A stretch of 44,537 nucleotides of DNA from an uncultured Flavobacteriales bacterium (lineage in GTDB: Bacteria; Bacteroidota; Bacteroidia; Flavobacteriales_C; GCA-002722245): NCBI GenBank assembly GCA_905182585.1, contig CAJJCC010000012.1, forward strand, positions 1 through 44,537. Direction: 5' to 3'. Each line of letters begins with the position of its first letter. Positions within the stretch are counted from its first letter, which is position 1. The notes under the pieces were generated by a model. It made no database searches and had not been told where the DNA came from. It saw only the letters and a list, made by a program, of their open reading frames with translations. Below are positions 36,917 to 43,407 of the stretch, piece after piece. The position numbers and the translations under genes are program-made.

Positions 36917-38377
36917 CTAATAACTAATCAGTCTAACTTCCTCAATCTGAAGACGTTCTTTTAACCAAGCCGATAATTTTTTCTCCTGAATTATAGTTGA
37001 GTTATTTCTTCGTTTCCACTTAATATGAAATGTTGGAACATCCTTTTTTATTTTTTCAAAATTAGTAACCTGATAAACGCCATATTCAAACTCTAAAATA
37101 TTAGAATACAAACTTTTCAATTCTCGCGAAATCTGAACAAATGGAATTGTATCTTTTTTAATTTCGTCTATTCGAAATGCTAATGAATCATGTCTTCTCT
37201 GAAGTAATTTAATTTGCTGTAAATTAACACTATACATGTCTTCAAAAAACTTTGGTCCTTCAAATTTTTGATTGTTAATTTTATCTAAAACTTCATCAAT
37301 TCGCTTGTCTTCCAAAATTCTTAAATCAATTTCTTCGGGTCGTAAGTCAAAATCATTTAGTGCAATTTGATAATCTTCTTTATCCCACTTTGCCTTCCCT
37401 ATTAAACTGATTTCAATCAACGGAAGTCCATTGTTATAACTGATTTCGGAATTGTGCATTTCTCTTGGTTTAAAATGCTTTTTTACAAATTCCCCTGCAT
37501 TTTTTTCAAAATGATTCTGCTTATAAGATTCCCATAAAGTATAAATACTTGGTACAATCAATAACAATGAAAACACTAAAATGTACCGCTTAAATTTTCG
37601 ATCTTTTACCTGATCTAAAAAGTGAACCAAAGGAAATTTTAAATATCTAATTACAATAAACGAGGTTAAAGCAATATATACACTGTTAATTAAAAATAAA
37701 TAGAATGCTCCTGAAAAATAGCCCCAATTTCCTGATGCAATTCCATAGCCTGCAGTACATAACGGCGGCATTAAAGCTGTGGCAATAGCAACACCTGGTA
37801 TTACATTTGTTACCTTATTGCGTGTATTTGCCATAATCCCAGCTAATCCACCAAAAATGGCAATAAACACATCTCTTAATTCAGGGCTAGTTCTACCTAA
37901 TAACTCATCACCAGCTTCACCAAAAGGTGTAATTAAAAAGTATAAAGTACTTGTTACTAAACTTACTGCAACTGTAATTATTAATGCTCGAAAAGATTTA
38001 AGAAGCGTACTCCAATCATTTGTTCCCAATGATAAACCTATTCCCATTATTGGTCCCATTAATGGTGAAATAAGCATAGCTCCTATAATTACAGCTGTTG
38101 AGTTGGTGTTTAAACCAATACTTGCAATAATAATGGAAAATATTAAAATCCAGATATTGAATCCTTTAAACTGAATTTGATTTTTAATCATTTTTACAGT
38201 GGCTTCTTTATCCACTTCATCCGCAAAACTTAATGTACTTTTTAAAAAATTGATAAGCTTTGATATAAAATCCTTAAAACTATCTGCTAAATTCAAGTCA
38301 GACCCCTCTAATAACTTACCTTTCACGACTGAATCTAGTTTACTAACTTGTTCTTCGTTATTTTTATCTTCTTCCAT
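36917..38377 (-). CDS. DUF389 domain-containing membrane protein
   Basis: FNIWILIFSIIIASIGLNTNSTAVIIGAMLISPLMGPIMGIGLSLGTND and VIPGVAIATALMPPLCTAGYGIASG: DUF389 signatures. Confidence 0.93.
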   Translation of the reverse strand: MEEDKNNEEQVSKLDSVVKGKLLEGSDLNLADSFKDFISKLINFLKSTLSFADEVDKEATVKMIKNQIQFKGFNIWILIFSIIIASIGLNTNSTAVIIGAMLISPLMGPIMGIGLSLGTNDWSTLLKSFRALIITVAVSLVTSTLYFLITPFGEAGDELLGRTSPELRDVFIAIFGGLAGIMANTRNKVTNVIPGVAIATALMPPLCTAGYGIASGNWGYFSGAFYLFLINSVYIALTSFIVIRYLKFPLVHFLDQVKDRKFKRYILVFSLLLIVPSIYTLWESYKQNHFEKNAGEFVKKHFKPREMHNSEISYNNGLPLIEISLIGKAKWDKEDYQIALNDFDLRPEEIDLRILEDKRIDEVLDKINNQKFEGPKFFEDMYSVNLQQIKLLQRRHDSLAFRIDEIKKDTIPFVQISRELKSLYSNILEFEYGVYQVTNFEKIKKDVPTFHIKWKRRNNSTIIQEKKLSAWLKERLQIEEVRLISY

Positions 38378-38892
38378 TACTTAATAAACTTTCCCTCTAT
38401 TCGATAATTCGACTCAAACGCAAATTTAACACTCTGATTGCACTCAATTAAAAATCCATTTTCATTTAACTCTAAGTGATACTTAAATTCGTAAAACATA
38501 TTTTTCTTTTCCACGTTGATATTAACATGTAAACCTCCATTACAGCTATCAAATTGCAACTTTTTAACACTTTGTTTAAAATCGGTTGTTTGTAATGTTT
38601 TTTCACAGCCACCATTTACAGTTGTAATTTTATATAAACTTGAATTGTTCTTTGAAATATCTGATTCGAGAAAAAGCTTTAATTCTTTTTCCCAATTAAC
38701 ACTGTCTACATATAAAGTATCCCTTTTATCTTCCTTAATAAGGTACTTTATTAACTTTAAGTCATTGGATTTAAAGTCCTGAATAAGAGAATTATATTTA
38801 CTGTTCAATATATACCCTTTATCAGCGGATGTTGGCTGATTACATCCTATAAATATTAGAATTATTATTGTAAAAAAAATGGAATACTTCAC
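38377..38892 (-). CDS. Hypothetical lipoprotein (171 aa)
   Basis: ORF with MKYSIFFTIIILIFIGCNQ lipoprotein signal; 1-nt overlap with the DUF389 gene. Confidence 0.65.
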   Translation of the reverse strand: MKYSIFFTIIILIFIGCNQPTSADKGYILNSKYNSLIQDFKSNDLKLIKYLIKEDKRDTLYVDSVNWEKELKLFLESDISKNNSSLYKITTVNGGCEKTLQTTDFKQSVKKLQFDSCNGGLHVNINVEKKNMFYEFKYHLELNENGFLIECNQSVKFAFESNYRIEGKFIK

Positions 38893-39361
38893 GTTATCAA
38901 CAGTGTTAAAACCAAAATGTTAATTAAATCACAATTTCTTAGAAATCAGATCGTTTACAAAGGTAGTTATGAACAGTTAAATTGTTAATAACAGTTTTAA
39001 ATCGTTAATTAAATTAATAAGTTTTTCTAGGTATTAATAGTAATAATGTTCATATCACCTAAAAATCGAATTTTCCAAACTAAATTTGTAGTTATTTATC
39101 AAAAGCTATTAACACATAATTCACTGTTATGAACAGATGATAATTTAAGTTTTTAATTAACAATAGTGGTTATTAACACAAATGTTAGTAACCTCATAAA
39201 CAACTATATTTCAATTAATTAATTATAATAATCATTGTGTACAACCCGTTATTAATTTGATGTTTTTGATAAAAAAAGAATTTTAATATAAAGTAATCCG
39301 ACTTATTAACCGACTATAAATAATACCATATTTTATTTAAATAAAAAGAATATATATATAT
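38893..39361. other. Candidate chromosomal replication origin (oriC): DnaA-box-like cluster plus AT-rich stretch
   Basis: Exact TTATNNACA matches at 38894-38902(+), 38967-38975(+), 38983-38991(-), 39127-39135(+), 39170-39178(+); one-mismatch copies at 39047-39055(-), 39096-39104(+), 39106-39114(+), 39183-39191(-), 39236-39244(-), 39303-39311(+); very AT-rich 39200-39361; no ORF. Confidence 0.65.
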
Positions 39362-40363
39362 ATGTTTAATCAAGAAGTAGAAAAAGAATTAAAGGAAAAA
39401 GGGTTTTTGGAAAGAGAAATCGATGCTTCTTTAGATTTGTTTGAAGAAATTGAAAAATTGAAGAAAGAAAAGAATGCTGTTATTCTTGCTCACTACTACC
39501 AGGAAGGCGACATTCAAGACATTGCAGATTTTGTAGGTGATAGTTTAGCTTTAGCGCAGAAAGCGGCTAAAACAGAGGCTGACATCATTCTTTTTGCAGG
39601 GGTTGAATTTATGGCTGAAACAGCAAAAATTTTAAGTCCTGATAAAAAAGTTTTGCTTCCGGACTTAAAAGCTGGTTGTTCACTTGCTGAAAGTTGTCCG
39701 GCTGATGAATTTGCAAAATTTAAAGCTGATCGTCCGGATCATATTGTAATTTCATACGTAAATTGTTCAGCAGATGTTAAGGCTTTAACGGATATAGTTT
39801 GTACTTCAACTAATGCAGTTCAAATAATTGAAAGCTTGCCGAAAGAGCAAAAAATTATATTTGGACCTGATCGAAATTTGGGCGCATATTTAGAAAAAAA
39901 GACAGGTCGTGAAATGGCTATATGGGATGGAAGCTGCATGGTTCATGAAATATTCTCTCTTGAAAAAATAATAACACTTAAAGCTCAAAATCCTGGAAGT
40001 GAAATTATTGCGCATCCAGAATGTGAAGCCGAATTATTAGATCATTCTACCTTTATAGGGTCCACTGCAGCATTATTAAGATACTCAAAGTCAAGTGATT
40101 GTGATACATTTATTGTAGCTACAGAAAGTGGTATTTTGCATCAAATGGCGAAGGAATCACCAAATAAAACCTTTATCCCTGCTCCACCAACAAATACTTG
40201 TGCTTGTAATGATTGTCCGCATATGCGACTAAATACACTCGAAAAATTATATAATTGTTTAAAATTTGAAATTCCAGAATTAACGCTAGACGAAAGTTTA
40301 ATTGAAAATGCCAAGAAGCCAATTATAAAAATGTTAGAAATTAGTGAACGTTTAGGTTTATAA
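39362..40363 (+). CDS. nadA: Quinolinate synthase
   Basis: [97 protein letters not shown]. Confidence 0.97.
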
Positions 40364-41996: not shown

Positions 41997-43334
41997 CTAT
42001 TTTAAAATTACTTTAGCAACATAGTTTATTGCATTAATTGTATAGATACCTTTTGATAGTAGTGCTGTATTTATGGATGTAATATCTTCCGTTATTAACT
42101 GTGTTAAAACAATACGACCATTTAAATCTGTTAAGTTGACTATCTGACCAATTATTTTTTCAGACTCAATATTTAAAATTCCTGTTGTTGGATTTGGATA
42201 GACACTAAGATTTTTAATTTCAACAAATTTAATGGAATTAGCATTATCATAATTGTCATAAACGTCATTAAATGCCTGTGCAAAACTATAAGAACCTCCA
42301 CAAGCATCAGCATCGTTGTTCGCACTCCAAGTCATAAAACCTCGTAATTCTGGATAGCTTTTTGATAATGTGTAAGTTCCAGGTTTAGATCCTACACCTA
42401 GTAGATATTTTGCAGCGGCTTTTAGTGTTGATGTTGCTATATAACCAGATCCAGCTGAACAAGAGCTTGCAGGTAATGCGATTACAATTTTGCTTGCAGG
42501 TAGTCCAGAATAAGTACCAGTTGTTTTATTTCCTTGGTTTTTAAATCCTTCTATTGCTGCTTCTACTTGTGTAATTATATAATCGGCTGTTCCTTGATTA
42601 TAAAGCTTACTATTGGCTGGCCAAGCTTCATAACCAGGTAATGAATAATTTTCTGAAGAATTGTAAAGTTGAATCATAAGTAGGTCTATTTCATTTCTTA
42701 ATGATTCTATGATAGGTAACCATGAACCATTACAATCATTCCATGGAGATAAACCACCAGTAGTATACTTCACTTCTGGCGCCATTGTTAAGATCATTTT
42801 TTTGCTATACTTATCTTTAAACCATGTTTGAAGTTCTTTTACAGCATCAATTATATAATCCCATTGTGGGGCTGGATTTGTTATCGTTTGGTTTACTGAG
42901 GGACACATATAAACTGATCTTTCTAGATCTAGGTCTATACCATCTACTTTATAATTTATTATAAAGTCTTTTATTTTTGTAACAAATATATTTTTATCAG
43001 AGATAGAATTTAACTTAAAAGATCCATTAGCTCCACCTATACTTACAATAACCTTTTTTCCTTCTGCCTTAACTGTTGTAATATCCTGTTTTAGAGTTAT
43101 TGAATTTTTAGGTGTAAATTCTAAATCAGATACTTTGTTATCATCTTGTAAATTATTTTTATCAGCTTCTAAAAATGATAAAACTAAAACATTGTAAGAA
43201 TCATTAATATCTTTTAACCTAAGCGTTTCCCAATTGTGCCAATATCCTACTAAAACTTCTTTAGGTAACTGTGCTTGGGAAATAATACTAATAACTATGC
43301 CTAGTGCTAATAATCTCAATTTTAAATTATTCAT
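41997..43334 (-). CDS. Glycoside hydrolase family 18 chitinase with T9SS type A sorting domain
   Basis: KVIVSIGGANGSF, DGIDLDLE (GH18 DxxDxDxE-type), MIQLYNS; C-terminal LSVYPNPTTGILNIESEK...LSKGIYTINAI. ORF extends to 43364 but M11 gives the signal peptide. Confidence 0.93.
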   Translation of the reverse strand: MNNLKLRLLALGIVISIISQAQLPKEVLVGYWHNWETLRLKDINDSYNVLVLSFLEADKNNLQDDNKVSDLEFTPKNSITLKQDITTVKAEGKKVIVSIGGANGSFKLNSISDKNIFVTKIKDFIINYKVDGIDLDLERSVYMCPSVNQTITNPAPQWDYIIDAVKELQTWFKDKYSKKMILTMAPEVKYTTGGLSPWNDCNGSWLPIIESLRNEIDLLMIQLYNSSENYSLPGYEAWPANSKLYNQGTADYIITQVEAAIEGFKNQGNKTTGTYSGLPASKIVIALPASSCSAGSGYIATSTLKAAAKYLLGVGSKPGTYTLSKSYPELRGFMTWSANNDADACGGSYSFAQAFNDVYDNYDNANSIKFVEIKNLSVYPNPTTGILNIESEKIIGQIVNLTDLNGRIVLTQLITEDITSINTALLSKGIYTINAINYVAKVILK

Positions 43335-43407
43335 TTGTCGGTAGTTTGGGTTTATGAGTAACAATTTACTTATTATTGTTGTTATTTGAAAATGGTTTTA
43401 TTGCCTT

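What the first reader, a model, noticed from the sequence alone, without database searches (positions are those of the whole stretch)
38893..39361. Probable oriC in an ORF-free AT-rich gap without dnaA next to it
Five exact matches to TTATNNACA (TTATCAACA, TTATGAACA x2, TTATTAACA x2) plus at least six one-mismatch copies lie in 469 bp. With roughly 72% AT assumed, I would expect well under one exact match by chance. They are followed by a very AT-rich stretch (39200-39361, ending in a TA run) that could be the unwinding element. Two boxes sit in wider dyads (e.g. CTGTT-atg-AACAG at 39125-39137). The box variants have A rather than C at the sixth position (TTATNAACA), which may be lineage-specific.
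Basis: partly seen in the sequence, partly recalled or inferred. Interest (0 to 1): 0.75.

Follow-up and report, generated by a model that had tools for sequence, protein, structure and literature searches.

The report
Chromosome replication origin beside nadA gene
This gene-free, AT-rich gap is almost certainly the place where this bacterium starts copying its chromosome, and the same place next to the gene nadA seems to serve that purpose in many other Bacteroidota; it is an ordinary kind of element in a conserved location that I did not find described.

Summary
All five TTATNAACA words of the 44.5-kb window lie in the 469-bp gap 38893-39361 (79.5% AT). In 20,000 dinucleotide shuffles of the gap, none reached five. 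The gap also holds ten one-mismatch copies and, at its nadA end, the least stable 60 bp and 100 bp of the window.

The oriC reading is well supported. The cumulative GC-skew minimum falls in this gap in the window and in the matching gap in two genus mates. In one mate the sign flips for genes of both orientations. The gap upstream of nadA is rich in DnaA boxes across Bacteroidota (2.75 per kb against 0.15 in nadA and downstream; none in 11 cyanobacterial controls). In the one complete relative sampled, the skew minimum lies at nadA, its maximum opposite, and dnaA 0.78 Mb away.

dnaA being elsewhere is ordinary for this phylum and already published. Two points I did not find described: the conserved origin-nadA linkage, and a box-plus-triplet element next to nadA resembling the basal unwinding system. 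The A at box position 6 goes with Ala at DnaA position 435 (E. coli numbering), but that residue changed only once on the tree, so the link is a hypothesis. DnaA binding and origin activity were not tested.

The parts
38893..39361 (.). putative oriC: ORF-free AT-rich gap between a lipoprotein-like gene (minus strand) and nadA (plus strand)
   Evidence: contig GC-skew minimum falls inside it
38894..38902 (+). DnaA-box-like TTATCAACA
   Evidence: exact match; TATCAACA or a variant of it in all 5 genus members
38967..38975 (+). DnaA-box-like TTATGAACA, left half of a convergent pair
   Evidence: exact match; convergent pair TTATNAACA-N7-TGTTNATAA also upstream of nadA in G003, G028, G038, G196, G334, G354 and others
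38983..38991 (-). DnaA-box-like TTATTAACA, right half of the convergent pair (spacer 7 bp)
   Evidence: exact match
39106..39114 (+). one-mismatch box CTATTAACA; TATTAACA is identical in all five genus members
39127..39135 (+). DnaA-box-like TTATGAACA, inside the dyad CTGTTATGAACAG (39124-39136)
39170..39178 (+). DnaA-box-like TTATTAACA
39303..39311 (+). one-mismatch box TTATTAACC next to the unwinding region; conserved as TT[AT]T[CT]AAC in 5 of 5 genus members
39312..39328 (+). GA spacer then triplets CTA-TAA-ATA-ATA-CCA: position of the BUS-like (DnaA-trio-like) element; triplets are more regular in genus mates (ATA-ATA-ATA-ACA-ACA in G004)
39314..39361 (.). probable DNA unwinding element; 39314-39373 is the least stable 60 bp of the window
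39362..40363 (+). nadA, quinolinate synthase (flanking gene, conserved neighbour of the origin)
   Evidence: Pfam NadA, E 8.5e-121
38377..38892 (-). lipoprotein-like gene, GTG start, no Pfam match (flanking gene; in several other families this place is rpiB)

Best explanation
The gap 38893-39361 is the chromosomal origin of replication (oriC) of this Bacteroidota bacterium. Proposed mechanism: DnaA binds the array of TTATNAACA boxes at 38894-39202. It is anchored at the box TTATTAACC (39303-39311) and loads onto one strand of the following triplet-like, very AT-rich stretch (39312-39361), which melts and admits the helicase. Forks then leave in both directions, nadA being on the leading strand of the right-hand fork. 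Shown: the box cluster, the weakest duplex, the strand-composition switch at this spot, and conservation of the place across the phylum. Inferred: DnaA binding, unwinding and initiation.
For: Box cluster far above chance and unique in the window. Least stable DNA of the window at 39314-39373, directly after a box. All-base cumulative G-C minimum in the gap in the window (39247, 39327-39347), in G004 (138967; gap about 138948-139700) and in G001 (109686; gap 109272-109720). In G004, fourfold-site skew is negative in all four 20-kb pieces to the left and positive in the piece to the right, for genes of both orientations. nadA-upstream boxes across Bacteroidota: 127 in 46.2 kb, 51 of 66 loci, against 0.15 per kb in nadA and downstream and 0 in 11 cyanobacterial loci. 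Complete Chitinophaga sp. E66: skew turns from negative to positive between 5.51 and 5.67 Mb (nadA 5.617) and back between 2.53 and 2.68 Mb (antipode 2.474); dnaA is at 0.109 Mb. G396 turns between 2.43 and 2.67 Mb (nadA 2.527). G398 turns between 1.69 and 1.83 Mb (nadA 1.775). Box, short spacer and NTA triplets just upstream of nadA: 22 of 66 loci against 0.2 expected, never on the other strand.
Against: The genome is a 74%-complete MAG in 63 contigs without dnaA, so whole-chromosome skew and the local DnaA could not be examined. The two flanking genes diverge, which by itself bends the all-base skew; the control for this is G004, since the window has few fourfold sites to the right (89). In G001 the fourfold-site curve has no minimum at the gap, only the all-base curve has. 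In G397 the skew turns about 100-150 kb from nadA. G354 shows no clear local turn. Exact boxes are absent from the gap in genus mates G002 and G001, which keep degenerate ones. The window copy of the triplet element is interrupted (CTA-TAA-ATA-ATA).
Confidence: 0.92

Rival explanations
1. The cluster is a DnaA-binding site that is not the origin: a DnaA-titrating or regulatory site (like datA or DARS in E. coli) or DnaA control of nadA.
For: Box clusters outside oriC exist in known systems (own knowledge); convergent box pairs also occur away from nadA in some related genomes (G106, G222, G071); the boxes sit in the nadA promoter region.
Against: The strand-composition switch coincides with the site in the window, in G004 and in a complete distant relative; the weakest duplex follows the last box; such sites are not expected at the skew minimum.
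Confidence: 0.05
2. The words are operators of another transcription factor for the divergent pair lipoprotein gene / nadA, resembling DnaA boxes by chance.
For: Divergent genes; several words lie in dyads (TGTTAATAACA, CTGTTATGAACAG).
Against: In relatives with a different left neighbour (rpiB or a sulfate permease) the boxes persist, and in Chitinophaga relatives they are mostly of the form TTATNCACA, often canonical TTATCCACA; boxes also stand singly and in both orientations rather than as one fixed dyad; the skew switch is not explained.
Confidence: 0.02
3. Chance enrichment in AT-rich DNA, with skew change produced only by gene direction.
For: 79.5% AT gap between divergent genes; the all-base skew is sensitive to gene direction.
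Against: 0 of 20,000 composition-matched shuffles; first of 280 permuted words; conservation in the genus and across the phylum; fourfold sites of genes on both strands switch sign in G004.
Confidence: 0.01

Closest known systems
Predicted oriCs of Bacteroidetes in DoriC / Ori-Finder (Prevotella intermedia OMA14, PMC4755523; Elizabethkingia meningoseptica, PMC8994065)
   Same: DnaA-box cluster with AT-rich stretch at the skew turn, far from dnaA; PMC4755523 states that this is common in the phylum
   Different: Those predictions used TTATCCACA-type boxes; the passages read do not name nadA as neighbour; here the boxes are TTATNAACA
Basal unwinding system (BUS) of Bacillus subtilis oriC: DnaA boxes, short spacer, DnaA-trios (PMC8287927)
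   Same: Box, 2-4 bp spacer, then 3-bp periodic AT-rich repeats, e.g. TTCACA-CCC-CTA-ATA-GTA-GTG upstream of Chitinophaga nadA and ATA-ATA-ATA-ACA-ACA in G004
   Different: In the window the triplets are interrupted and some have C in place of T in the middle, so the published rule (middle A on the other strand, three in a row) is not met there
TTATTAACA DnaA boxes of Mycoplasma hominis and relatives (PMC2751442)
   Same: Same box word, including A at position 6
   Different: Upstream of dnaA in a mollicute; unrelated lineage and context

Membership tests
bacterial chromosomal oriC (DnaA-type) | cluster of DnaA boxes above chance in a non-coding region | tested here: met
   5 exact and 10 one-mismatch TTATNAACA; none of 20,000 shuffles reach 5
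bacterial chromosomal oriC (DnaA-type) | AT-rich DNA unwinding element next to the boxes | tested here: met
   lowest nearest-neighbour stability of the 44.5-kb window at 39314-39373
bacterial chromosomal oriC (DnaA-type) | GC-skew minimum at the site | tested here: met
   on contigs of three genus members, and at nadA of one complete chromosome of a distant relative; the window's own chromosome is not closed
bacterial chromosomal oriC (DnaA-type) | next to dnaA or dnaN (usual in many bacteria, not a defining feature in Bacteroidetes) | tested here: not met
   no dnaA in the window or assembly; in relatives dnaA lies about 0.8 Mb away. PMC4755523 reports that this is common in Bacteroidetes
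bacterial chromosomal oriC (DnaA-type) | DnaA binding, unwinding, initiation in vivo | not testable with these tools
   needs binding assay, marker-frequency sequencing, plasmid replication test
BUS (DnaA boxes plus DnaA-trios) | three or more consecutive triplets with middle A (on the 3'-5' strand) within 16 bp of a box | tested here: inconclusive
   met in genus mates G002 and G004 and in many relatives (22 of 66 loci by a strict pattern); window copy CTA-TAA-ATA-ATA-CCA is interrupted

The most novel reading that the evidence does not exclude
Across most of Bacteroidota the chromosomal origin has stayed fixed beside nadA rather than dnaA, with a BUS-like unwinding element at the nadA side, and in one branch DnaA and its boxes changed together: DnaA residue 435 (E. 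coli numbering) became Ala (with Lys at 432 in nearly all) while box position 6 shifted from C towards A.
Probability: 0.5. Interest if true: 0.5.

Novelty: new member of a known kind. Interest (0 to 1): 0.36.

Why it matters
A fixed neighbour gene (nadA) gives a simple way to locate replication origins in draft Bacteroidota genomes and MAGs, where dnaA is no guide. That helps growth-rate estimates from coverage, closing of genomes, and comparison of origin architecture. If the change of box and DnaA recognition residue is real, it is a natural case of an initiator and its binding site evolving together.

Tried and rejected
Looked for dnaA in the own assembly: absent. A 400-genome search for the convergent box pair found it in 52 of 395 genomes of the class, in several of them upstream of nadA, but it is not general. 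The covariation of DnaA residue 435 with box position 6: 17 genomes with more A6 than C6 against 1 the other way where the residue is Ala, 4 against 13 where it is Thr. The association survives stratifying by G+C (Mantel-Haenszel odds ratio 5.1, p 0.001), but the residue changed only once on the DnaA tree and only one independent pair exists, so it stays a hypothesis. Rfam: nothing.

Full report
OBSERVATION. The gap 38893-39361 lies between a minus-strand lipoprotein-like gene (38377-38892, GTG start) and nadA (39362-40363). It holds all five TTATNAACA of the window, at 38894+, 38967+, 38983-, 39127+ and 39170+, and ten one-mismatch copies, the last being TTATTAACC at 39303. The whole assembly has 179 such words in 1.52 Mb. 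Composition-matched shuffles of the gap give 0.215 on average and never 5 in 20,000. The word ranks first of 280 permutations of its letters, and no other intergenic gap in the window holds more than one TTATNNACA. The gap has no ORF over 28 aa and no RNA family. The weakest duplex of the window is 39314-39373 (60 bp) or 39270-39369 (100 bp), at the TTATTAACC box and after it.

STRAND COMPOSITION. The window's cumulative G-C count reaches its minimum at 39247 and again at 39327-39347, both inside the gap. Because the flanking genes diverge, this was checked in genus mates and with fourfold-degenerate sites split by gene direction. In G004 (186-kb contig) the skew is negative in four successive 20-kb pieces left of the gap and positive just right of it, for genes on both strands. 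The all-base minimum lies at 138967, at the edge of the homologous gap, and the fourfold minimum at 138206, in nadA. In G001 the all-base minimum is at 109686, in the gap, but the fourfold curve keeps falling beyond it; this is weaker support.

RELATIVES. nadA of 40 relatives and of 80 loci from GTDB genomes was sought or collected. The region upstream of nadA holds DnaA boxes across Bacteroidota: 127 TTATN[AC]ACA in 46.2 kb (51 of 66 loci), 2.75 per kb, against 0.15 per kb in nadA and downstream. Permuted words average 9.8 (maximum 63), and cyanobacterial nadA upstreams have none in 11 loci. The left neighbour varies (lipoprotein-like gene in the window, rpiB in several families, sulfate permease in another), so the boxes go with the place, not with one gene pair. 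In complete Chitinophaga sp. E66 (CP079103.1, 6.29 Mb) 40 sampled pieces give a skew minimum at 5.51-5.67 Mb, where nadA lies (5.617), and a maximum at 2.53-2.68 Mb, opposite; dnaA is 0.78 Mb away. G396 and G398 also turn at nadA. G397 turns 100-150 kb away and G354 gives no clear local turn.

FINE ANATOMY. Across five genus members the gap aligns with several box positions kept in exact or degenerate form; TATTAACA at 39107-39114 is identical in all. At the nadA end a box is followed by a short spacer and three-base repeats: TTATCAACC-GA-ATA-ATA-ATA-ACA-ACA in G004, TTCACA-CCC-CTA-ATA-GTA-GTG in Chitinophaga, CAACAC-G-CTA-TTA-TTA-CTA-CTA in L014. A strict form of this pattern occurs in 22 of 66 Bacteroidota loci on the nadA strand, 0 on the other, with 0.2 expected from shuffles. 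The pattern was written after looking at these sequences, so the count describes how widespread it is and is not an independent test. This is the layout of the basal unwinding system, in which DnaA bound at boxes extends onto DnaA-trios (PMC8287927). In the window the triplets read CTA-TAA-ATA-ATA-CCA and do not meet the published rule, so membership there is inconclusive.

BOX VARIANT. E. coli DnaA inserts helix 434-451 into the major groove and reads the 3' part TnCACA of the box; T435M is defective in box binding (PMC5742627). DnaA of the window's genus mates and of many relatives has KDHAT where Chitinophaga and its relatives have RDHTT and Pedobacter and its relatives RDHST. Genomes with Ala at 435 have mostly A at box position 6 (49 to 12), those with Thr mostly C (17 to 39). 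The trend holds within G+C strata, but the residue changed once on the tree, so common descent alone could explain it. The window's own DnaA is missing from the MAG, so its residue is inferred from G001, G003 and G004.

WHAT IS KNOWN. That oriC lies far from dnaA in Bacteroidetes is published (PMC4755523; an example in PMC8994065). TTATTAACA boxes are published for Mycoplasma hominis (PMC2751442). No held paper was found that names nadA as the origin's neighbour, but the Ori-Finder table of lineage indicator genes could not be read.

VERDICT. The site is oriC with high confidence (0.92), a new member of a known kind. DnaA binding and initiation are inferred, not shown. Interest is moderate, because of the phylum-wide origin-nadA linkage and the BUS-like element.

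Noticed in passing
G257 contig C5 (dnaA 42726-42929, nadA 50198-51094): In this member of the class dnaA lies only about 7 kb from nadA, unlike the relatives in which dnaA is about 0.8 Mb away; possibly a trace of an ancestral dnaA-origin linkage or a secondary move.
   Followed up: no
G395 (CP079103.1) 108782-109266: dnaA of the complete Chitinophaga sp. E66 chromosome is split into two frames with an internal stop; possibly a sequencing error.
   Followed up: no
L042 / G400 (CAMCUO010000060.1): The MAG is titled Chitinophaga pinensis, but its DnaA and origin group with G028 and G399, not with Chitinophaga; probably mislabelled.
   Followed up: partly
G396, G428, G433, G434, G038, G446 and others: Several relatives encode a second protein with a DnaA C-terminal (box-binding) domain, mostly short (about 100-240 aa open frames).
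   Followed up: no
G222, G071, G106, G138 and related genomes (family f20): Further convergent TTATNAACA pairs (spacer mostly 6-7 bp) lie on other contigs than, or away from, the nadA-linked pair; possible DnaA-regulated promoters or titration sites.
   Followed up: no
window 41997-43364: Glycosyl hydrolase family 18 protein with a Por secretion (type IX) C-terminal sorting domain.
   Followed up: no
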